A stretch of DNA of 34,105 bases, from positions 1 through 34,105 of the forward strand of contig JAFQIY010000036.1 of the NCBI GenBank assembly GCA_017415165.1, read 5' to 3'. This DNA is from Oscillospiraceae bacterium (GTDB lineage: Bacteria > Bacillota > Clostridia > Oscillospirales > Ruminococcaceae). A program made the position numbers and the translations under genes. The notes under the pieces were generated by a model. The model was given only the letters and a program-made list of their open reading frames with translations, was not told the origin of the DNA and ran no database searches. Of the stretch, positions 2,246 through 20,085 are shown piece by piece. The stretch's first letter is position 1. Every line of letters begins with the position of its first letter.

Positions 2246-4533
2246 CAGCCGATTACCTCCTTTCCGATGTAGTCATAAATGCTGGTTGTTTTACCGTTAA
2301 CCTCAACGGTTCTTGCTTCGAGGTCAACAACAGTCTTTGTACCGTTTTCGTACACAGTTTCAATCTTTGTGTCGGAAAGAATGTTGTACTCTGTAATTGT
2401 AGAACCTGCTGTCTTTGAGAGAACTTCTTCCGCAAACTTGTAGCAAGCAGCAGCATCCTCAAGCCAGTATTCATAGTTAGCGTAGTAATACTTGTCGTAA
2501 CGTGTGTCCTTGAGCTCGTCAGCAGATTCAGCAACGAGGTCAAATCTGAGGTTTGTACCTGTTGCAAGTGCACGGAGCACAAGGTCAGCAACCTGAGCGT
2601 CGCCGTTTACAGCTGTTGTGGAAACAGGCTTGAGACCGCTCATAACAATCTGATAGAATGGGATTTCCTGGTCGAACACGTCAAACTTACTGGAGTTGAG
2701 CGGAACATTGGAAATGTGGTCAACGTACTTGAGGACGTAAGCATTTGCGCCGTCTGCAAGGATTGAACCAACAGAGCCCTTCAGCTCCTCAAGGTAAGTC
2801 TGGAGGTTATACTTGAACATTTCTCTGGAAACGGACTTTCTGCCGTAGTCGCCGTAGATTACGGTTGTAGCGCTGCCGAGGGAAATGTTGCTGATACCAG
2901 CCTTGCTGTAGCTCTTTGCAAGGTTGTTGAACATCTTCTCATACTTTCTCGGGCTGAGAAGTGAGATAGCGTCATAGAACTGATTTTCAACGCCGTGAGC
3001 AAGGTCGTATTCAATCTGTCTGGAGTAAGCGTTGGAAACTCTGATTGCTGTATCGGTCATTGTGAAGTAGCCGTTACCTGACTCGAATGTAAGGTTGTCA
3101 ACGCCAGGATAAAGAGCAATGCCGTTTTCCTCAGCATATTTCTTGAGCTCCTTGAAATCCTTGTTGCCGCCGAGCTTGGAAGCAGGCTTAGCCTTGTCAG
3201 CAACCTTTTCCTTGATGTCAGCAGTTGTCCACTGGTTGTAGTTGACAACCATATCGTCAACGCCGAGCTCCTTGAGCTTTTCAAGGATTGTCTTAGCTTC
3301 CTCGAAGGAAGTAGTTTCGTGCTGCATCATTACAGGGAAACCGAGAACAGTTTCCTGCTTCATTACCGCACCATAGAAGTCGATGTAGAGTGCGGACTTG
3401 TCAGCAGCAGCGGACTTTGTAACACCCTGGTTCTTTGTAAGGTAATTTCTGTAGCTGTCAGCAATATCAACATAGTTGATATCGGACTTATCAGCATTTG
3501 ATACAGGATAGTATCTTACTTCAACCTCAGGAACAAGAATGCCTCTCTTTTCATAAACAGCAAGCGGGTTAGCGTCGCCGCCCATAAGGTATTCGTCATC
3601 TGTTCTGATTTCAAAATCGAAGTAGCAAGCGTTGTAGCTGGTCTTTTCCTGACCTGTAACATATGCGTTGATTGTTGCGCAGGTGTCGCCCTTGTCAGCA
3701 ACAACCATCATACCGCTGTTGCCCTTTACGATACCGTACATAGGAAGGTAAACGTTCTGAGTTACAGCAGGCTTTGTAGTTTCGACAGGAGTAATATTTC
3801 TGCCGTAAACTTCACCCTTATAAGTCTTATAGTTCATCTTGCCGTTGTTGAAATTGATTATTGCGCCGCTTCCGTCAGGAACAACGTAGTAACCCTTTTC
3901 AGTAGGCTCAGCTGCACCGAAAGCACCCATAAGAACGAGGTTTGTAACAATCTTGTCGGGGTCTTCTTCAACAATCTGCTTTGTGTCAACACTTACGCCG
4001 AGGTAATCGTCGTGAAGTGTGTACTTTACAGGAACAGTTATTGAAGCGTTTCCGTATTTATATGTAAGTTCAAGTCCGTCAGAAGCCTTCTTCACGGAAA
4101 CCTTGCACTTAACCTTCTGGTCAGCACTGTTCTGTGCAGTAGTGCTTCTTCTTGAAGGCTGAGCGAAAGTCATAGTCATAGAGGACTTCAGCTTTGTCTT
4201 CTGAGCAGCCTTACCTGCAGCAGCGTCAACATTGATAGGATTTGACCACCACACCTCGCCTGTTGTCTTGTCAACGAGTGCGATGTTACCCTTCTTGTTG
4301 TAATATAAAGCCATTTTGCCGTTTTCGACAGCAAGCTCCATTTCAGCCAATGCCTGGTCGTCAGTAATAAGAGGTTCCTCAGTGCTCATTGCATATGAGG
4401 AGCTTTCCTCTTCTGAAGAAGCGTCTGAAGCAGTATCAGCAGCATCTTCTGAGCTTACAGGCAGGGCACACAGAGGCACCATCAAAGCCACGCAGCAGAG
4501 GCAGGCAAGCAGCTTTTTAAACCTTTTCTGCAT
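2245..4533 (-). CDS. Secreted DUF5696-family protein
   Basis: A 762-aa exported protein resembling the DUF5696 family found beside sugar ABC transporters in Firmicutes; I know of no assigned biochemical activity. It begins MQKRFKKLLACLCCVALMVPL, a signal peptide, followed by a Ser/Glu/Asp-rich linker (about residues 28-55). Residues about 60-380 look beta-rich (KTTGEVWWSNP, YVVPDGSGAIINF). Residues about 385-650 alternate strands and helices like a TIM-barrel glycosidase (DDMVVNYNQWT, ALYPGVDNLTF, VSTTAVNGD), but no catalytic pair can be named with confidence. ATG 4533 is preferred over GTG 4548 because GGTGA sits about 9 nt upstream of it. It could be a glycan-processing or glycan-binding partner of the importer. 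Confidence 0.82.
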   Translation of the reverse strand: MQKRFKKLLACLCCVALMVPLCALPVSSEDAADTASDASSEEESSSYAMSTEEPLITDDQALAEMELAVENGKMALYYNKKGNIALVDKTTGEVWWSNPINVDAAAGKAAQKTKLKSSMTMTFAQPSRRSTTAQNSADQKVKCKVSVKKASDGLELTYKYGNASITVPVKYTLHDDYLGVSVDTKQIVEEDPDKIVTNLVLMGAFGAAEPTEKGYYVVPDGSGAIINFNNGKMNYKTYKGEVYGRNITPVETTKPAVTQNVYLPMYGIVKGNSGMMVVADKGDTCATINAYVTGQEKTSYNACYFDFEIRTDDEYLMGGDANPLAVYEKRGILVPEVEVRYYPVSNADKSDINYVDIADSYRNYLTKNQGVTKSAAADKSALYIDFYGAVMKQETVLGFPVMMQHETTSFEEAKTILEKLKELGVDDMVVNYNQWTTADIKEKVADKAKPASKLGGNKDFKELKKYAEENGIALYPGVDNLTFESGNGYFTMTDTAIRVSNAYSRQIEYDLAHGVENQFYDAISLLSPRKYEKMFNNLAKSYSKAGISNISLGSATTVIYGDYGRKSVSREMFKYNLQTYLEELKGSVGSILADGANAYVLKYVDHISNVPLNSSKFDVFDQEIPFYQIVMSGLKPVSTTAVNGDAQVADLVLRALATGTNLRFDLVAESADELKDTRYDKYYYANYEYWLEDAAACYKFAEEVLSKTAGSTITEYNILSDTKIETVYENGTKTVVDLEARTVEVNGKTTSIYDYIGKEVIG

Positions 4534-4565: not shown

Positions 4566-5195
4566 TTAAACTCTGAATCTGTAGGACAGCTCTGTGTAAA
4601 TGGAAAGGATAAAGATGATAACCTGCTGGAACAGTGTAAGAAGAAGTACGAGCAGGAACAGGATAGCAACCATTGCCGCAATTGTCAGCAGCATAAGTGC
4701 AATAGTCTTTCCGAACGAGAACTGATGTACAGCCTTTATTCCCGAAATAAGGAGAATGAACGACCAGCAAGTACCGATAATTTCGATAGACTGGATAAAT
4801 ACATATTCGTCCTTGATAAGGAAATGTGACATTACTGTACCGATAAGGTAGCCTGCAATGTACGGAACAAGTGCATAAGCGGAGTTGATGAAGATATTCT
4901 TCATTGTACCCTCGCCGTCAAAGAGCGTACACATTGCCCAGTTTGCAACTACCCACGTACCGAAGATAATAAAGCTCTTGAAGATGTACGGTACGATGTT
5001 GAAGATTTTGTCATAATCAGAGTAATACTGAAAACCGTAAAGTCTGCTGTAAGCAACCTGCTGAATAAAGAGCAGGCATACGATAAAGAACGCAATTCTC
5101 ATAGAACCGCCCTTTTTCCAGCGCAGGTCCTCAAAGCCCTCAAAAGGGTGAGTAACAACGTGTTTAACGAATTGTCCCTTTGTCAAATCCAGCAT
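4566..5195 (-). CDS. YIP1-family integral membrane protein
   Basis: A 209-aa protein with about five hydrophobic segments (for example MRIAFFIVCLLFIQQVAY, FKSFIIFGTWVVANWAMC and IALMLLTIAAMVAILFLL), fitting the bacterial YIP1 membrane family. The N-terminus (MLDLTKGQFVKHVVTHPFEG) is cytoplasm-like and contains the short Phe-Glu-Gly-Phe-Glu stretch typical of such proteins. ATG 5195 lies one base after the TAA of the upstream NHL/TPR gene and is preceded by GGGTGGTG; a GTG at 5207 inside that gene is less likely. Molecular role is unknown. The tight packing suggests it acts with the NHL/TPR and DUF5696 proteins, perhaps as a membrane partner or assembly factor (inference). Confidence 0.85.
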   Translation of the reverse strand: MLDLTKGQFVKHVVTHPFEGFEDLRWKKGGSMRIAFFIVCLLFIQQVAYSRLYGFQYYSDYDKIFNIVPYIFKSFIIFGTWVVANWAMCTLFDGEGTMKNIFINSAYALVPYIAGYLIGTVMSHFLIKDEYVFIQSIEIIGTCWSFILLISGIKAVHQFSFGKTIALMLLTIAAMVAILFLLVLLLTLFQQVIIFILSIYTELSYRFRV

Positions 5196-12497: not shown

Positions 12498-14150
12498 TTA
12501 GTTTCTCTTCTTAGCAACTACAGCTGCAGCAGCGAGAGCTACAGGAATTACAGCGAGAGCAACAGAAGCGTTACCAGTTGTTGGGTTAGAAACTTCAACT
12601 TCTTCTTCAACTTCTTCTTCAACGATTTCTTCTTCAACGATTTCTTCTTCTACTTCTTCTTCGATTACTTCTTCTTCGAGAGTTTCGTCGTCAGCCTTAG
12701 CTTCAGCATCAGATGTAGCATCATCAACAGCACCAGCTGTAAGAACTACATCGAGGCTATCCCAGTACCAGTCAACGGAAGTAGCGAGTTCCATAGAGTG
12801 GAGGTAGAGAGCGTAAGCGTTGCTTGTCTGAGCAGCGTCAGCGATTGCATCCCAGTTGAAGGATACAGTGGATTCGCCCCAGTCAAACATTGTTGTATCA
12901 GCGAGGGACATTGTCCAGCCTTCGTTGATTACGAGACCGCCCTGGAAGAGGTTGTAGCCAGCCCAGTCAAGACCAAGGTAGTTTGTGTTTTCCTTAGCGA
13001 AGTAGTTATCGGAAACCATACCGTTGTAGAGGTGCTGTGTGAACTTGGAGTAGTCTGTGGAATCGCCTGTTTCTGTTGTGTAGTACCAGAACATCTTAGC
13101 GTCAGCCCACTTAGCAATTTCAGCAACCTTAGCGTCAACGTCCTTCTGAGCAGTAACAACTGCAATTGTTTCATCAGCTTCTGGATCAGCAGTTGAAGCA
13201 TTATAAGCTTCACCAATTGATTCCTCATATGCAGCAAGAGCATCATCAAGCTTCTGATCAAGCTTACCCTTTTCATTGTTGAGAGTAGCAATCTTGCCAT
13301 TTACCTTAGCAACAACGCCGTCCTTAGTAGCAGCCTTGAGACCAGTAAGAGCGCCGCCAACTACAGCTTCAAAACGTACTCTTTCCTTAGCAGAGTTGAA
13401 TACGAATGTTGTTGTTTCGTAGTTTTCGATAGCATCGTTGAGAACAGGACCAACGTTTACATAGTTGTTTGTATCACCATTGAGGTACATATCACCCATA
13501 GCGGAATTGTAAGCACCTGCAAGGTAAGTAATAACGTTGTAGTTATTGTTGAGTGTTGTTTCCATTGGGCTCTGGAGGTATGTCTTTGAAGGCTGTGTTA
13601 CACCAGTGATGTAAACGCCTGCTGTTGTTGCATCGTCAGTCCAGTCGAAATCAATGTCAATGAAGCCTGTGCAAGCGTTGAATTCAGAAATAGTACCAGC
13701 AGCAGCCCATGTGCCGTCCATACCAACATTGTGGTTTACTGTTGCAGTAATTGTAATGTCGCCCTTATCAATGCCAGCAAATGCTTCGTTAGCAATTGGA
13801 GCAAAACCGCTGTTGATCTGCCAAGCATTTTCGTTAATGCCTTCATTCCAGTCAAATGTGAAAACCTTGGAACCAGCACCACCTGTTGTATCCTTGATTG
13901 TAACAACCATCTTGGATACACCTTCAAGACCTGTAATACCAAAACGTGTTTCGCCGCCTGCTGTAGCACCGGAAAGATCGATACCAGAGAAGTTAGCTAC
14001 GAGGTTACAAGTACCCTTTGTCCATACTTCTGTAGCAGCTGTAAGGTCATAGTTAAGAGTCTGATCCTCAACTGCGGAAACTGTTGTAGCCATTGCAGAT
14101 ACAGCTACTGCGCCTGCTGCGATTGCAGCCATTGTCTTTTTCATGTTCAT
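12498..14150 (-). CDS. Cell-wall-anchored surface protein (NPTTG sorting-type motif)
   Basis: A 550-aa surface protein of unrecognised family. The signal peptide is MNMKKTMAAIAAGAVAVSAM, with cleavage likely after VSA. Residues about 27-215 look beta-rich (FSGIDLSGATAGGETRFGIT, KMVVTIKDTTGG). A helical, Lys/Glu-rich portion is seen about 285-345 (KIATLNNEKGKLDQKLDDA). Aromatic-rich beta segments follow (MFWYYTTETGDSTDY, SVDWYWDSLDVVLTAG). A Glu/Val repeat of about 35 residues (EEEVEEEIVEEE) forms a spacer before NPTTGNAS, a hydrophobic helix and KKRN, the order expected of a sortase substrate. The ATG has AAGGAGG at good spacing. Promoter and terminators are its own. It may be a structural coat protein or an adhesin; no catalytic motif is seen. 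Confidence 0.85.
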   Translation of the reverse strand: MNMKKTMAAIAAGAVAVSAMATTVSAVEDQTLNYDLTAATEVWTKGTCNLVANFSGIDLSGATAGGETRFGITGLEGVSKMVVTIKDTTGGAGSKVFTFDWNEGINENAWQINSGFAPIANEAFAGIDKGDITITATVNHNVGMDGTWAAAGTISEFNACTGFIDIDFDWTDDATTAGVYITGVTQPSKTYLQSPMETTLNNNYNVITYLAGAYNSAMGDMYLNGDTNNYVNVGPVLNDAIENYETTTFVFNSAKERVRFEAVVGGALTGLKAATKDGVVAKVNGKIATLNNEKGKLDQKLDDALAAYEESIGEAYNASTADPEADETIAVVTAQKDVDAKVAEIAKWADAKMFWYYTTETGDSTDYSKFTQHLYNGMVSDNYFAKENTNYLGLDWAGYNLFQGGLVINEGWTMSLADTTMFDWGESTVSFNWDAIADAAQTSNAYALYLHSMELATSVDWYWDSLDVVLTAGAVDDATSDAEAKADDETLEEEVIEEEVEEEIVEEEIVEEEVEEEVEVSNPTTGNASVALAVIPVALAAAAVVAKKRN

Positions 14151-14539: not shown

Positions 14540-14568
14540 TTGACAAACGTGTCAATTCATATTATAAT
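14540..14568 (+). promoter_or_regulatory. Perfect consensus promoter of the small toxin gene
   Basis: TTGACA (14540-14545), a 17-bp spacer and TATAAT (14563-14568) match the vegetative consensus at every position. The start is expected near 14575, giving a 5' leader of about 50 nt and a transcript of about 200 nt ending at the terminator at 14774. Confidence 0.88.
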
Positions 14569-14599
14569 GTGTATGGGTACACCAAACGGTGGACGGTTG

Positions 14600-14613
14600 C
14601 TCCCGCAAGGGAG
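14600..14613 (+). promoter_or_regulatory. Hairpin sequestering the toxin ribosome site
   Basis: CTCCC-GCAA-GGGAG forms a 5-bp stem with a GNRA-type GCAA loop. Its 3' strand is the core of the very strong AGGGAGGTGAT Shine-Dalgarno sequence of the toxin gene. Translation would therefore need this stem opened, a common control point in type I toxin mRNAs. Confidence 0.7.
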
Positions 14614-14623
14614 GTGATAAGCC

Positions 14624-14713
14624 ATGATAACATTGTCTGAATTAATTCAGTTTATGATGCTCATTGTGGAAATTATCACGTTATGCTTTCTTGTTTCAAA
14701 TAAGAAGAAGTAA
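14624..14713 (+). CDS. Small holin-like type I toxin (Hol-Tox/TxpA-like)
   Basis: A 29-aa peptide opening MITLSELIQFMMLIVEII, followed by TLCFLVSNKKK: a short polar start, one transmembrane helix and a triple-Lys end. This size and layout match the putative holin-like toxin (Hol-Tox) group of Firmicutes, related to Bacillus TxpA, whose overproduction damages the membrane (family knowledge). AAGGGAGGTGAT lies 4 nt before the ATG, partly buried in a hairpin. The gene has a perfect consensus promoter and a bidirectional terminator, and it faces a convergent small RNA gene. The small size lowers certainty, but the surrounding signals strongly favour a real gene. Confidence 0.8.
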   Translation: MITLSELIQFMMLIVEIITLCFLVSNKKK

Positions 14714-14731
14714 CTATTTTTTATTATACAT

Positions 14732-14774
14732 AAAAAATAACCGCCCACGCTCCCCAGCTTAGCGGTTATTTTTT
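14732..14774. terminator. Bidirectional terminator shared by toxin mRNA and antisense RNA
   Basis: A perfect 13-bp stem (14732-14744 with 14762-14774, arms AAAAAATAACCGC/GCGGTTATTTTTT) encloses a 17-nt loop. The A run on one side and T run on the other make it work in both directions. Both convergent transcripts should end here and so are fully complementary over about 43 nt. Confidence 0.9.
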
Positions 14775-14817
14775 AGCCATTATAACGGGAGCAACCGTTC
14801 ATCGGTGTACCCTTTTC
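14732..14817 (-). ncRNA. Predicted antisense RNA antitoxin
   Basis: A perfect promoter at 14825-14853 should start an RNA near 14817 that ends in the shared terminator, about 86 nt long. It contains no ORF with a ribosome site. Its 3' half is complementary to the toxin mRNA 3' end. Its 5' half repeats the toxin leader, including CGGTTGCTCCCG, whose CTCCC could pair with the toxin ribosome site in trans. This fits the convergent arrangement of TxpA/RatA- and Fst-type loci (family knowledge). Confidence 0.75.
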
Positions 14818-14824
14818 TATTAAT

Positions 14825-14853
14825 ATTATAACCCCTCTTAACGCAATTGTCAA
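14825..14853 (-). promoter_or_regulatory. Perfect consensus promoter of the antisense RNA
   Basis: On the minus strand TTGACA (14848-14853), a 17-bp spacer and TATAAT (14825-14830). The match is as exact as that of the toxin promoter on the other strand. The -35 box lies within the hairpin region that follows thrS. Confidence 0.85.
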
Positions 14854-14861
14854 GAGGGGTT
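14830..14861 (-). terminator. Hairpin after thrS, overlapping the antisense promoter
   Basis: A 10-bp perfect stem (AACCCCTCTT, 14830-14839, with 14852-14861) lies 20 bp after the thrS stop. The downstream minus-strand sequence is AT-rich without a strict T run. It probably ends thrS transcription, and its loop and arms contain the promoter of the antisense RNA. Confidence 0.6.
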
Positions 14862-14881
14862 TCTCATTATACTATATATAA

Positions 14882-16828
14882 TCAGCGAGCCTTTGTCTCA
14901 TTTTCCTCAAAAATCTTGTTCAGCACGTCCTCCATAGCCATCACGCCCAGGTCACCCTCCTTGTGAGAGCGGAGAGAAAGTGTTTCAGCTTCAACTTCCT
15001 TATCGCCAACGATGAAGAAGTAAGGAATTTTTTCAAGCTGAGCCTGACGGATTTTGTAGCCCACGCCTTCCTTACGGGAGTCGATTGTAGCACGGATGCC
15101 GCGTCTTTCAAGCTTTTCAAGAACCTTTGCACTGTATTCAGCAGCACGGTCTGTTACAGGGAGAATTCTTACCTGCTCAGGGGACATCCACAGAGGAAGT
15201 GCACCTGCATATCTTTCGATGAGGTAAGCAAGTGTTCTTTCGTAGCAGCCGAGGGAAGTTCTGTGAATGATATAAGGCATTCTCTTCTTGCCGTCAACGT
15301 CTGTGTATTCCATACCGAATTTAGCAGCGAGAAGCATATCAATCTGAATTGTAACAATTGTATCTTCCTTGCCGAATACATTCTTGTACTGAATATCAAG
15401 CTTAGGACCGTAGAAAGCAGCCTCGTCAATACCGATTGTATATTCTACGCCGAGGTTGTCAAGGATCTTGCCCATAACAGCCTGAGCTTCTTCCCACTGT
15501 TCACGAGTACCCTCGTACTTGTTCTTAGGATTTTCAGGGTCCCACTGTGAGAATCTGAAAGTACAGTTTTCAAGCATACCAACCGTATCAAGAACGTACT
15601 TTGCCAGTTCAAGACAGCCCTTGAATTCTTCTTCAAGCTGTTCAGGACGGAGAATGAGGTGACCCTCGGAAATTGTGAACTGACGTACACGGATAAGGCC
15701 GTGCATTTCGCCGCTGTCCTCGTTACGGAAAAGTGTGGATGTTTCACCAAGACGCATTGGCAGGTCACGGTAGGAACGTGCTCTGTTCAGGAACACCTGA
15801 TACTGGAAAGGACAAGTCATAGGACGGAGTGCGAAACATTCCTTTTCCTCGTCGTCAGGGTCGCCGAGAATGAACATACCGTCACGGTAGTGGTCCCAGT
15901 GTCCGGAAATCTTGTAAAGGTCACGCTTAGCCATAAGTGGAGTCTTTGTCAGCAGGTAGCCTCTCTTCTGCTCCTCGTCTTCAATCCATCTCTGGAGAAG
16001 CTGAATTGTTCTTGCACCCTTCGGAAGAAGAATAGGAAGACCCTGACCGATGCAGTCAACAGTTGTGAAGTATTCAAGCTCACGGCCAATCTTGTTGTGG
16101 TCACGCTTTCTTGCTTCTTCAACAGCAGCAAGGTGTGCTTCAAGTTCGCTTGCCTTCGGGAAAGCCGTACCGTAAATACGGGAAAGCTGCTTGCCCTTTG
16201 CGTCACCTCTCCAGTAAGCACCTGTACAAGCAGTAAGCTTGAACGCCTTTACCACAGCAACGTTCATAAGGTGAGGACCTGCACAGAGGTCAGTAAATTC
16301 GCCCTGCTTGTAGAAGCTGATAGCCTCGCCCTTGTCAGCGTGTTCCTTGCAAAGTTCAACCTTGTAAGGCTCGCCCATCTTTTCCAACATAGCGATTGCC
16401 TCGTCAACAGGCAGGCTGAACTGTTCAAGGTCGATACCTTCCTTGACAATCTTCTTCATCTCAGCCTCAATAGCTGCAAGGTCGTCAGCTGTGAAAGCCT
16501 TTTCTGTATCAAAGTCATAGTAGAAGCCGTTATCGATAGCAGGACCGATAGCAAGCTTTGTGTTTGGGTAAAGACGCTTAACAGCCTGAGCAAGAATGTG
16601 TGAAGCTGTGTGCCAGAAAGTCTTTTTGCCTTCCTCGCTGTCGAAAGTCATAACCTCGAAAGTGCAGTCCTTGTCAATAGTTGTACGCAGGTCGCATACT
16701 TTTCCGTCAATTTTCACGCAGCAAGCGGACTTGTAAAGTCCCATTCCGATTCCCTTGACAACCTCAGCCGCAGACATCGCATTTTCGATTTCGCGGATTG
16801 AGCCGTCTTTCAGTGTGAGCTTAATCAT
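14882..16828 (-). CDS. thrS: Threonyl-tRNA synthetase
   Basis: Class II synthetase that charges tRNA-Thr in the cytoplasm; 648 aa, the normal length. An N-terminal TGS domain (about 1-62, MIKLTLKDGSIREIENAMSA) is followed by the editing domain with the metal-binding HTASH motif (His73, His77) and GPAIDNGFYYDFD. The catalytic core has motif 2 (FALRPMTCPFQYQVF), ERHL-region GEMHGLIRVRQFTISEGH, and motif 3 (WMSPEQVRILPV), which leads into the C-terminal anticodon-binding domain (EKLERRGIRATIDSRKEGVG). ATG 16828 is chosen over an upstream in-frame start because AAAGGAG precedes it and the TGS domain starts there. It is probably controlled by the T-box about 1 kb upstream, with a membrane-protein gene in between. 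Confidence 0.97.
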   Translation of the reverse strand: MIKLTLKDGSIREIENAMSAAEVVKGIGMGLYKSACCVKIDGKVCDLRTTIDKDCTFEVMTFDSEEGKKTFWHTASHILAQAVKRLYPNTKLAIGPAIDNGFYYDFDTEKAFTADDLAAIEAEMKKIVKEGIDLEQFSLPVDEAIAMLEKMGEPYKVELCKEHADKGEAISFYKQGEFTDLCAGPHLMNVAVVKAFKLTACTGAYWRGDAKGKQLSRIYGTAFPKASELEAHLAAVEEARKRDHNKIGRELEYFTTVDCIGQGLPILLPKGARTIQLLQRWIEDEEQKRGYLLTKTPLMAKRDLYKISGHWDHYRDGMFILGDPDDEEKECFALRPMTCPFQYQVFLNRARSYRDLPMRLGETSTLFRNEDSGEMHGLIRVRQFTISEGHLILRPEQLEEEFKGCLELAKYVLDTVGMLENCTFRFSQWDPENPKNKYEGTREQWEEAQAVMGKILDNLGVEYTIGIDEAAFYGPKLDIQYKNVFGKEDTIVTIQIDMLLAAKFGMEYTDVDGKKRMPYIIHRTSLGCYERTLAYLIERYAGALPLWMSPEQVRILPVTDRAAEYSAKVLEKLERRGIRATIDSRKEGVGYKIRQAQLEKIPYFFIVGDKEVEAETLSLRSHKEGDLGVMAMEDVLNKIFEENETKAR

Positions 16829-16850
16829 AATAATTCTCCTTTTTATATTT

Positions 16851-16882
16851 AGTGTGGAGTTTGGAGAGTGGAGTTTGGAGTT
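16851..16882. repeat. Partial copy of the palindromic MITE-like repeat
   Basis: A single arm (AGTGTGGAGTTTGGAGAGTG and onward to GGAGTTA) matches one arm of the full elements near sbcD. The loop and opposite arm are missing. It sits just upstream of the thrS ribosome site. Confidence 0.7.
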
Positions 16883-16924
16883 ATATTCCACATCACTCAC
16901 CAAAGTTTAATAACCAAAATTAAA

Positions 16925-18361: not shown

Positions 18362-18525
18362 GTACCCGCCTGTGAATTGATATATCCAAAAGGTCGATAA
18401 GGACAGTTACACAATCTTTTGAAATTTTTTGAATTTTGACAACGTTTCATTACTGAAACCACACAAGTGAAAATCCGATATTTAAGCCTCCGAAGTAATT
18501 TGCTTAATTAAACCAAAGGAGGTAT

Positions 18526-20085
18526 ATGGGTTTGGAAATCATCATCGGAATTATAGCTTTCCTGGTCGGTGCAATCATCGGCGGCGCTGTCTTGTTCAAG
18601 GTTGGTATAAATTACCGCAAGCAGCAGGCTGAAAATGCAATCGGCTCCGCAGAAAAAGAAGCGGAAAGAATTGTTGAGGACGCCAAGAAGGAAGCTGACA
18701 ACCAGAAGAAAATTGCGCTGGTAGAGGCTAAGGACGAAATCCATAAGAGCCGTAACGAGCTTGAAAAGGAAATCAAGGAACGCCGCAACGAAATGTCACG
18801 TCAGGAAAGACGTATCCAGCAGAAGGAAGAAAACCTCGACAAGAAAAGCGACAACATCGAAAAGAAGGAAGAACAGCTTCAGAAAAAACTGAAGCAGGCT
18901 GACGAAAAACTCGAGGAAGCCGACAAGATTAAAAAATCCCAGATGGAAATTCTGGAAAGAATTTCTCAGTTTACTATGGAACAGGCTAAGGAACACCTGC
19001 TCTCTATGCTTGAAAATGAGCTTGTCCACGACAAGGCTCTCAAAATCCAGCAGTACGAAACCCAGCTCAAGGACGAATGTGAAGAAAAGGCAAGAGACCT
19101 TATCTCCCTCGCAATCTCCAAGTGCTCCGCTGACCAGGTTTCTGAGTCCGCCGTTTCCGTTGTTCCTCTGCCGAACGACGAAATGAAGGGTCGTATCATT
19201 GGTAGAGAGGGACGTAACATCCGTACCCTCGAAACTCTCACAGGTGTTGACCTCATCATCGACGATACACCTGAGGCAATCACACTCTCCTGCTTCGACC
19301 AGGCAAGACGTGAGGTTGCAAGAATTGCTCTCGAAAAACTTATCGCAGACGGAAGAATTCATCCGTCCCGTATCGAAGAAATGGTTGACAAGGCTCGTAA
19401 AGAGGTTGAGCACCGCATCAAGCAGGAAGGTGAACGTGCCGTTCTCGAAACCAACGTCCACGGTCTTAACCACGAGCTTGTACGCCTCATCGGTAGACTC
19501 CACTACCGTACATCCTACCGTCAGAATGTTCTCAACCACTCTATCGAGGTTGCTCATCTGGCAGGAATTATGGCTTCCGAGCTTGGCGTTGACGCTAACC
19601 TTGCACGCCGTGCAGGTCTCCTCCACGACATCGGTAAGGCACTCAGCTACGAAATTGAAGGTTCACACGTTCAGATTGGTGTTGATGTCTGCCGCAAGTA
19701 CAAGGAAAACGCTGACGTTATCCACGCTATCGAAGCTCACCACGGCGATGTAGAGCCTAAGACAGTTATCGCATCCCTCGTTCAGGCTGCCGACGCAATT
19801 TCCGCAGCACGTCCTGGTGCAAGAAGCGAAAACTACGAAAACTACATCAAGCGTCTCCAGAAGCTTGAGGAAATCTGTACTTCCTTTGACGGAGTTGAGA
19901 AGTCCTTTGCTATTCAGGCAGGCCGTGAAGTTCGTATTATGGTATTCCCTGACAAGATTAACGATGAAAAGATGGTTATCATCGCTCGTGAAATCGCTCA
20001 GAAGATTGAAAACGAGATGGATTACCCAGGACAGATTAAGGTTAACCTCATCAGAGAAAGCCGTGCGGTAGAATACGCAAAATAA
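18526..20085 (+). CDS. rny: Ribonuclease Y
   Basis: Membrane-bound endoribonuclease that starts mRNA decay in Firmicutes; 519 aa, the usual length. An N-terminal transmembrane helix ([20 protein letters not shown]) is followed by a long charged coiled coil (about residues 30-180), a KH RNA-binding domain with [13 protein letters not shown] (from about 222), and an HD metal-dependent phosphohydrolase domain with LLHDIGKAL (about 364-372) and [17 protein letters not shown] lies just before the ATG; spacing is short (3-4 nt), and an in-frame TTG two codons on is an alternative. It has two candidate promoters and a structured leader, divergent from the thrS unit. A terminator at 20182-20213 ends the transcript. 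Confidence 0.97.

What the first reader, a model, noticed from the sequence alone, without database searches (positions are those of the whole stretch)
14540..14861. Compact type I toxin-antitoxin-like module with twin perfect promoters
A 29-aa single-helix peptide with an optimal ribosome site faces a convergent RNA of about 86 nt. Both promoters are exact TTGACA-17-TATAAT, and both transcripts should stop at one 13-bp bidirectional terminator. The layout fits TxpA/RatA- and Fst-like loci, but this peptide and RNA are too small for routine annotation. Promoters, hairpins and ORF are read directly; toxicity and antitoxin action are inferred.
Basis: partly seen in the sequence, partly recalled or inferred. 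Interest (0 to 1): 0.85.

Follow-up and report, generated by a model that had tools for sequence, protein, structure and literature searches.

The report
Twin-armed RNA-controlled toxin-antitoxin-like cassette
In a gut Ruminococcus, a 29-residue membrane peptide and a facing small RNA form what looks like a toxin-antitoxin pair; both RNAs begin with the same sequence, and a similar RNA framework turns up in other Clostridia around quite different small peptides.

Summary
Two exact TTGACA-17-TATAAT promoters face each other, a 29-codon hydrophobic ORF with a hairpin-masked ribosome site lies between them, and the RNAs share a bidirectional terminator. In relatives the peptide is under purifying selection (pooled dN/dS 0.17, 16 hand-picked pairs). 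Congeners are filed as Ruminococcus sp. MAGs.

A type I toxin-antitoxin-like module is the best reading (about 0.75). Toxicity and antitoxin action are inferred. It is not a member of Fst/par, TxpA/RatA, Hol_Tox or ComI by the tests run.

The match is locus-specific, even among copies of one genome. In antisense RNAs the element folds as a 5' hairpin; in toxin mRNAs it does not, and the ribosome site is masked. An RNA-only model finds the framework in 19 of 21 genus, 53 of 197 family and 34 of 196 class genomes, in part beside dissimilar peptides. Beside thrS the window's cassette is flipped relative to four congeners.

The parts
14540..14568 (+). toxin promoter, exact TTGACA-17-TATAAT
14575..14775 (+). 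predicted toxin mRNA (start inferred about 7 nt after the -10)
   Evidence: inferred
14575..14605 (+). 5' element of the toxin mRNA, same sequence class as the 5' end of the antisense RNA
14600..14613 (+). CTCCC-GCAA-GGGAG hairpin masking the ribosome site
14609..14615 (+). Shine-Dalgarno sequence GGGAGGT
14624..14713 (+). 29-aa hydrophobic peptide, putative toxin
14731..14775 (.). bidirectional intrinsic terminator and 45-bp overlap of the two predicted RNAs
14731..14816 (-). predicted 86-nt antisense RNA, putative antitoxin
   Evidence: model R2 90.1 bits (it is one of the model's own seeds)
14786..14812 (-). 5' element of the antisense RNA, predicted to fold as a 5' hairpin
14825..14853 (-). 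antisense promoter, exact TTGACA-17-TATAAT
14830..14861 (-). terminator-like hairpin after thrS that contains the antisense -35 box

Best explanation
A chromosomal type I toxin-antitoxin-like cassette built on a conserved RNA chassis. The + promoter makes an mRNA whose SD is masked in cis by a CUCCC/GGGAG hairpin, so toxin translation is low at rest. The - promoter makes an 86-nt antisense RNA capped by a 5' hairpin. The RNAs are fully complementary over the 45-bp terminator. Pairing probably starts between the terminator loops (U-turn-like motif in the antisense loop), spreads into a 3' duplex open to RNase III, and may be reinforced by the antisense CUCCC on the toxin SD. Losing the antisense RNA would release a membrane-active peptide. 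Shown from sequence: anatomy, conservation, purifying selection in relatives, predicted SD masking, the shared locus-specific 5' element, loop complementarity (by construction). Inferred: transcription, loop-first pairing, RNase III, toxicity, and that the 5' element is a stabilising cap whose two copies stay alike by recombination or selection.
For: Convergent promoters at 3 or fewer mismatches in 131 of 151 modules; antisense promoter nearer consensus in 94 vs 28 of 151; pooled pS 0.275, pN 0.056 over 16 pairs; P(SD unpaired) 0.12 vs 0.37 with shuffled leaders, lower in 96 of 105; antisense 5' 40 nt fold better than shuffles in 93 of 107, sense 5' 45 nt in 54 of 107; sense/antisense 5' element score own 30.6 vs cross 18.1, permutation maximum 20.3, and within 16 genomes own 28.0 vs 23.3, p<5e-5; UUGG/UUUG in 47 of 90 antisense loops vs 11.8 expected; loop pairing among five of the six host-genome copies: cognate -26.6 to -33.8, non-cognate -6.3 to -19.5 kcal/mol; RNA-first search: a hydrophobic, basic-tailed, SD-led ORF at 42 of 59 hits vs 3.5% of 692 control positions.
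Against: No expression or toxicity data. In the window co-fold the SD stays in its cis hairpin and does not pair with the antisense RNA, so direct SD occlusion is not predicted here. Some RNA-first loci have no peptide: 5 of 29 in the genus, 4 of 30 in the family, 17 of 59 by the strict ATG test, 14 of 28 at class level. RNAalifold finds no pair in the 5' element. Pair counts on A4 exceed shuffles for cells paired and covariation score (0/500 each) but not for pairs with double changes (379/500) or pair types (200/500); on the wider, poorly registered A6 no measure is clearly above shuffles (53 to 409 of 500). One of the 16 peptide pairs had 3 nonsynonymous and 0 synonymous changes. In G649, G745, G653 and G711 the shared element is no more alike within than between loci, and in G132 hardly so.
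Confidence: 0.75

Rival explanations
1. A non-toxic small membrane peptide (for example a regulator of a membrane enzyme) whose level is set by an antisense RNA; the layout is that of a type I pair but the peptide does not harm the cell.
For: Very different peptides sit on the same chassis; copies lie beside dnaA, gyrA and thrS, not obviously on mobile elements; tblastn of one relative's peptide against plasmids gave no match and of the window peptide against phages one weak match, E 0.5.
Against: Antisense-only truncated copies exist (L238, L245) and antisense promoters are on the whole closer to consensus, as expected if unchecked peptide is costly; some relatives match Hol_Tox, a putative holin-like toxin model (8 of 27 at E 1, best 1.5e-5).
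Confidence: 0.17
2. A short mobile or repeat element with inverted ends, in which promoters and peptide are passengers.
For: Inverted ends, several copies per genome (6 in the host genome; 20 in G083), tandem copies (L010, L048, L279) and an inversion at the thrS site.
Against: The ends differ between copies of one genome but agree better within a copy, the reverse of a transposon family; the peptide is under purifying selection. I did not search for transposases or target-site duplications.
Confidence: 0.04
3. Chance juxtaposition or a decaying remnant.
For: Degenerate or peptide-less copies exist in relatives (L247, L248, L262).
Against: Exact promoters, intact frame, purifying selection in relatives, and the same arrangement in 131 of 151 modules.
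Confidence: 0.04

Closest known systems
par/Fst family (pAD1 RNA I / RNA II)
   Same: Convergent promoters, bidirectional terminator as overlap, small membrane peptide, 5' stem-loop masking the SD, pairing that starts at the terminator loop (PMC7472228 passages).
   Different: par has direct repeats DRa/DRb giving complementary RNA; here the 5' repeats are inverted and give the same RNA sequence. U-turn in the toxin RNA in par, enriched in the antisense loop here. No Fst-type peptide match (PF13955 0 of 149 genomes).
TxpA/RatA of Bacillus subtilis
   Same: Convergent, overlap confined to the 3' ends, duplex open to RNase III (PMC4147584 passages; RNase III step inferred here).
   Different: 45-bp instead of about 75-nt overlap, 29-aa instead of 59-aa peptide, no Rfam RatA match in the window at gathering (best relative 28.2 bits against a threshold of 49, E 4.7), plus a shared 5' element and a cis SD hairpin.
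Hol_Tox peptides (Pfam PF16935)
   Same: 8 of 27 same-genus peptides match at E 1, best 1.5e-5; three host-genome paralogues match below the cut-off (best 17.6 bits, cut-off 23.3).
   Different: The window peptide itself gives no match at E 10; the chassis also carries peptides with no Pfam match at E 1.
Clostridioides difficile type I pairs (CD2517.1-RCd8 and others)
   Same: Convergent toxin and antitoxin genes in a clostridium (PMC6563280 passages).
   Different: Three characterised toxins of 50-53 aa, long complementary overlap, no shared 5' element described in the passages read.
ComI competence inhibitor (NCBIfam NF052249)
   Same: Weak match to a 30-position model, E 0.0054, 16.5 bits.
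   Different: Curated cut-off is 55 bits; not met.

Membership tests
type I toxin-antitoxin (general) | small hydrophobic peptide, translated | tested here: met
   29 aa with KKK tail and SD; dN/dS 0.17 over 16 relative pairs; translation itself not observed
type I toxin-antitoxin (general) | antisense RNA complementary to the toxin mRNA | tested here: met
   promoter, 45-bp overlap and terminator in sequence; transcripts not observed
type I toxin-antitoxin (general) | peptide toxic, RNA neutralises it | not testable with these tools
   needs expression in a laboratory strain
Fst/par | Fst-type peptide | tested here: not met
   no Pfam or NCBIfam Fst match for the window peptide at E 10; PF13955 0 of 149 phylum genomes, where the only control ringing, Lactococcus lactis, was below the cut-off
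Fst/par | convergent promoters and bidirectional terminator | tested here: met
Fst/par | direct repeats DRa/DRb giving complementary RNA | tested here: not met
   window: inverted score 50, direct 24; inverted beats direct in 124 of 151, 2 ties; same-orientation 30.6 vs complementary 15.1 in 107
Fst/par | 5' stem-loop sequestering the SD | tested here: met
   P(SD unpaired) 0.004 in the window; 0.12 vs 0.37 in relatives
[quoted passage not shown]
   population result: YUNR in 33 of 90 sense loops (52 expected) vs 76 of 90 antisense loops (51 expected). Stems were called with G-T pairs on the antisense strand, which trims sense loops; PMC7472228 says not all par homologues have a U-turn
TxpA/RatA | RatA RNA family | tested here: not met
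   no window match at gathering; L038 28.2 bits, threshold 49
TxpA/RatA | RNase III-dependent decay of a 3' duplex | not testable with these tools
   only the 45-bp overlap is visible
Hol_Tox (PF16935) | Pfam gathering score | tested here: not met
   window peptide has no match at E 10; 8 of 27 relatives match at E 1, best 1.5e-5
ComI (NF052249) | NCBIfam cut-off 55 bits | tested here: not met
   16.5 bits

The most novel reading that the evidence does not exclude
The RNA chassis, not the peptide, is the inherited unit: a Clostridia-wide invertible cassette with twin promoter arms that accepts unrelated membrane peptides. Because both arms carry the same 5' element and a strong promoter, the interior can flip and stay functional, exchanging which promoter drives toxin and which drives antitoxin; the window holds a flipped copy at a site where congeners hold the other orientation.
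Probability: 0.2. Interest if true: 0.85.

Novelty: new variant of a known kind. Interest (0 to 1): 0.62.

Why it matters
If right, there is a widespread, RNA-defined class of type I toxin-antitoxin-like loci in gut Clostridia that peptide profiles only partly see: G083, G050, G041, G151 and G022 have 20, 12, 11, 9 and 4 RNA-model matches and no match to the peptide profiles, and 20 of 26 peptides read beside RNA-first family hits do not match the window-type profile at E 0.01. It would let such loci be found by RNA rather than by peptide, raises why an antitoxin and its target should begin with the same sequence, and gives a testable case in which the two promoters of a pair may be exchanged by inversion. 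I found no description of this arrangement in the listings of nine full-text searches of an open-access library that lacks most subscription journals; one search was badly worded and one search was for one database name.

Tried and rejected
Rfam scan of the window: 0 matches at gathering; a permissive scan of seven loci gave 12 matches, one above its threshold (a T-box in L021, away from the module); the rest, including a RatA match at L038 and one 20.1-bit match over the L001 module, are below threshold. A model of the 5' element alone (R1) was too weak: 36 matches at E 1 in 46 loci, mostly antisense copies, few sense copies. RNAalifold on that element gave no pairs. A crude regex table of element and terminator letters, meant to test pairing of the element with the terminator stem, was unusable and dropped. 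Pair counts on A6 were run twice: with a register error of mine in one helix (65.0% paired vs 64.8 shuffled), one search corrected (70.2 vs 69.1, 53/500; covariation score 119/500): not significant. DNA pattern in viral contigs: 54 stretches, none with a module by my detector, which knows only the genus-type terminator. Fst family as yardstick: no locus obtained. A standard transposon: ends differ between copies. The 14-locus 'non-Hol_Tox' subset turned out on rechecking to hold two spurious ORFs and several window-type peptides; one search replaces it. Structure prediction of a 29-aa helix was not attempted.

Rows dropped: 11 of 162 modules for short flanks or Ns; 20 of 151 lacking a promoter at 3 or fewer mismatches on one side, then 24 near-duplicates, leaving 107; 17 of 107 without a terminator found, and several of the 90 found are plainly wrong hairpins; 2 of 107 without an SD match; for A4, 43 of 107 antisense ends not picked by a regex and 15 of the remaining 64 by eye; for A5, 86 of 107 not picked by a regex, and L027; in the within-genome test, loci missing from my hand-typed genome table and genomes with fewer than three distinct modules. 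Nine of the 27 matching class-level genomes matched only inside ORFs of more than 500 codons and are probably false.

Full report
OBSERVATION. The locus reads as described. The + promoter is TTGACA 14540-14545, 17 nt, TATAAT 14563-14568. The - promoter is TTGACA 14853-14848, 17 nt, TATAAT 14830-14825. Five exact TTGACA-17-TATAAT sites occur in the 34-kb window against 0.01 expected. Between them lie a GGGAGGT ribosome site, a 29-codon ORF (14624-14713) and a bidirectional terminator (14731-14775). The antisense RNA of 86 nt folds better than dinucleotide shuffles (z -3.27); the toxin leader does not (z -0.33).

NEIGHBOURHOOD. The cassette sits between the 3' end of thrS (minus strand, 14882-16903; Pfam tRNA-synt_2b E 1.3e-36) and a 550-codon minus-strand ORF (12498-14150) without a Pfam match at E 1e-5, upstream of which an exact promoter lies at 14527-14499. 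The antisense -35 box lies inside a terminator-like hairpin after thrS (14830-14861). Two contigs of same-genus genomes equal, in length and module, GenBank records titled 'MAG: Ruminococcus sp.'.

FAMILY BY PEPTIDE. The host genome has five peptide matches at E 1 and six RNA-model matches. Peptide searches: 12 of 21 same-genus genomes, the host included (E 0.05); with a 27-member profile 44 of 297 family genomes (E 0.01); with a 20-member profile 73 of 396 family genomes in 33 of 126 genera (E 0.001) and 27 of 341 class genomes, of which nine match only inside ORFs of more than 500 codons and are probably false. Script extraction gave 162 modules from 179 loci. Over 16 close pairs that I chose by hand from similar peptides (L022 used twice), pS is 0.275 and pN 0.056, dN/dS 0.17; one pair, L196/L200, had 3 nonsynonymous and 0 synonymous changes. 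The frame is therefore, on the whole, selected as protein.

PROMOTERS. Of 151 modules with full flanks, 133 have a sense promoter, 148 an antisense promoter and 131 both at 3 or fewer mismatches; the mean best score in shuffles was about 4. The antisense promoter is closer to consensus in 94, the toxin promoter in 28, with 29 ties (Wilcoxon 4e-13). The searched stretch was longer on the antisense side (260 vs 140 nt), which favours it slightly. The extended -10 (TGn) goes the other way: 96 of 133 sense, 65 of 148 antisense promoters.

THE SHARED 5' ELEMENT. The toxin mRNA begins GGGUACACCAAACGGUGGACGGUUGCUCCCG and the antisense RNA, after a few A-rich nt, GGGUACACC-GAUGAACGGUUGCUCCCG. This is an inverted repeat in DNA, hence the same, not complementary, RNA sequence. 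Over 107 non-redundant modules the own sense-antisense score is 30.6, against 18.1 for other loci and 15.1 for the complementary orientation; the highest of 20,000 permutation means was 20.3. The own antisense is best or tied for 38 and in the top five for 63. Inside 16 genomes (78 modules) own is 28.0 against 23.3 for other copies of the same genome, permutation maximum 26.4, own best or tied for 38 of 78; in the host genome 38.8 against 24.4. There is no effect in G649, G745, G653 and G711 and little in G132, G712, G002 and G742. Inverted similarity beats direct similarity in 124 of 151, with 2 ties.

TWO FOLDS FOR ONE ELEMENT. The first 40 nt of the antisense RNA fold better than shuffles in 93 of 107 (mean z -1.48); the first 45 nt of the toxin mRNA do so in only 54 of 107 (z -0.13). 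In the toxin mRNA the SD is masked: P(unpaired) 0.12 against 0.37 with shuffled leaders, lower in 96 of 105. The antisense 5' region is also more complementary to the toxin SD than shuffles (-10.7 vs -7.9 kcal/mol; 90 of 105), but in the window co-fold the SD stays in its own hairpin and the RNAs join through the 45-bp terminator overlap (interaction -41.9 kcal/mol). A hand-named hairpin in the element, on 48 distinct sequences, exceeds shuffles in cells paired (81.5 vs 76.1%) and covariation score (0.286 vs 0.208), 0/500 each, but not in pairs with double changes (379/500) or pair types (200/500); related sequences can pass such shuffles without structure. On a wider, poorly registered alignment it is not significant, and RNAalifold predicts none. 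The fold test is the better support.

TERMINATOR LOOP. The terminator stem is conserved (14 pairs including the inner stem, 5 with double changes in 20 sequences). In the 90 of 107 modules where a hairpin was found (several wrongly), UUGG or UUUG occurs in 47 antisense loops (11.8 expected), and YUNR in 76 antisense loops (51 expected) but 33 sense loops (52 expected); stems were called with G-T pairs on the antisense strand, which trims the sense loops. Loop pairing is much stronger for cognate than non-cognate copies among five of the six host copies, so copies could coexist; cognate complementarity follows from the shared DNA and is no independent evidence.

RNA-FIRST SEARCH. A covariance model of 20 antisense RNAs (R2, base pairs only in the terminator) was searched without any peptide: 19 of 21 genus genomes, 53 of 197 family genomes in 39 of 125 genera, 34 of 196 class genomes in 27 of 132 genera, E 0.001; the sets overlap (the host is in all three). 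I read 30 of the 86 genus hits, many of them the model's own seeds: 24 have a small peptide beside the RNA, 5 have none (two antisense-only truncated copies, one degenerate frame, two in G014 with the element at both ends but no peptide), 1 is cut by a contig end. I also read 30 family hits picked from ten genomes, none of which had a peptide-profile match; 26 of 30 have a hydrophobic, basic-tailed, SD-led ORF. In these 60 (59 evaluable), a strict test requiring ATG is met in 42, against 3.5% of 692 other positions in the same loci and 0.25% of 1180 shuffles. At class level 14 of 28 loci read had such an ORF with relaxed start codons; some class hits may be chance.

DIFFERENT PEPTIDES, SAME CHASSIS. 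Of the 26 family peptides, 6 match the window-type profile at E 0.01 and 20 do not (three of the 20, in L279, are borderline at 0.023). Examples of the 20: MQVAILALTLLILVVIDEIIKHIKK, MGLFLSFITALVNVIRLIREINIHKSAKK, MEQQIYTAIMLFILLEIFKTIKK; at class level there are 22-aa forms such as MEYVYIIIFMIVFITLIESIKK. Of ten sent to each library at E 1, Pfam matched none and NCBIfam one weakly (HokA, E 0.068). The shared 5' element persists: own 33.4 vs 18.6 in the 20, 31.8 vs 20.7 in the 6; in the four hits without an ORF it is at background (15-18), as expected for antisense-only remnants. In the 14 class loci with an ORF own exceeds the row mean in 14. Several of the 20 are copies from one genome, and distant homology cannot be excluded for peptides this short.

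INVERSION. At the thrS site both flanks of the window match those of L007 in opposite orientation (89% over 397 nt, 94% over 731 nt) while the interior matches directly. Single-flank matches put L010, L008 and L017 in the same orientation as L007, so the window's copy is the odd one among five genomes. thrS lies on the opposite strand relative to the toxin in the window and on the same strand in L007 and L010. Breakpoints fall in or near the promoter and 5'-element arms. Across all modules 52 pairs share flanks only in the same and 18 only in opposite orientation, but 11 of the 18 rest on stretches of at most 113 nt. Assembly error is possible, though by the sequences the arms share at most 13 identical nt in a row.

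MECHANISM AND COMPARISON. The best reading is a type I toxin-antitoxin-like module: SD masked in cis, antisense RNA pairing loop-first at the terminator, 3' duplex decay, optional SD occlusion. It works like par/Fst in layout and like TxpA/RatA in its 3'-only overlap, but is not filed under either: par has direct repeats and a U-turn in the toxin RNA (PMC7472228 passages); TxpA/RatA has a 75-nt overlap and no complementarity of the antitoxin to the coding or initiation region (PMC4147584 passages). Three Clostridioides difficile pairs have 50-53-aa toxins and a long overlap (PMC6563280 passages). PMC9045289 (passages) reports a transcription start for an unannotated holin-like toxin in Clostridium acetobutylicum, so such genes can be transcribed. 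PMC8040213 (passages) lists 301 microbiome RNA candidates overlapping another on the opposite strand; I could not check whether this chassis is among them.

VERDICT. The new content is the RNA chassis with like 5' ends, its reach across Clostridia with different peptides, and the flipped copy. Everything functional remains inference.

Noticed in passing
L006 (G000:C36:30000-49500): modules at 888-983, 4319-4402, 4664-4759, 5071-5166 and 18446-18538: Five further copies in the host genome lie around the replication genes: three within about 1.1 kb upstream of dnaA (L006:5423-6772), one about 3.3 kb further out, one directly after gyrA.
   Followed up: partly
L248 and L262 (G014): Twin convergent RNAs with the 5' element at both ends but no recognisable peptide; the sense RNA carries a hairpin of the AAAAATCGGC / GCCGATTTTT type instead.
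   Followed up: no
L238, L245: Antisense-only truncated copies beside or after other modules: possible orphan antitoxins.
   Followed up: no
L048 (G243), L279 (G151), G083 contig C17: Tandem arrays of modules, with a 353-bp spacing between three successive antisense elements in L048.
   Followed up: no
window 14830-14861: The antisense promoter's -35 box lies inside the terminator-like hairpin after thrS, so thrS read-through or termination might influence antitoxin synthesis.
   Followed up: no
window 12498-14150 (-): 550-codon ORF with a signal-like start, a Glu-rich stretch and a C-terminal hydrophobic tail, no Pfam match at E 1e-5; a similar gene start is visible near the module in L017.
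   Followed up: no
L021:1034-1327 (-): T-box leader (93.7 bits) close to a module in G002.
   Followed up: no
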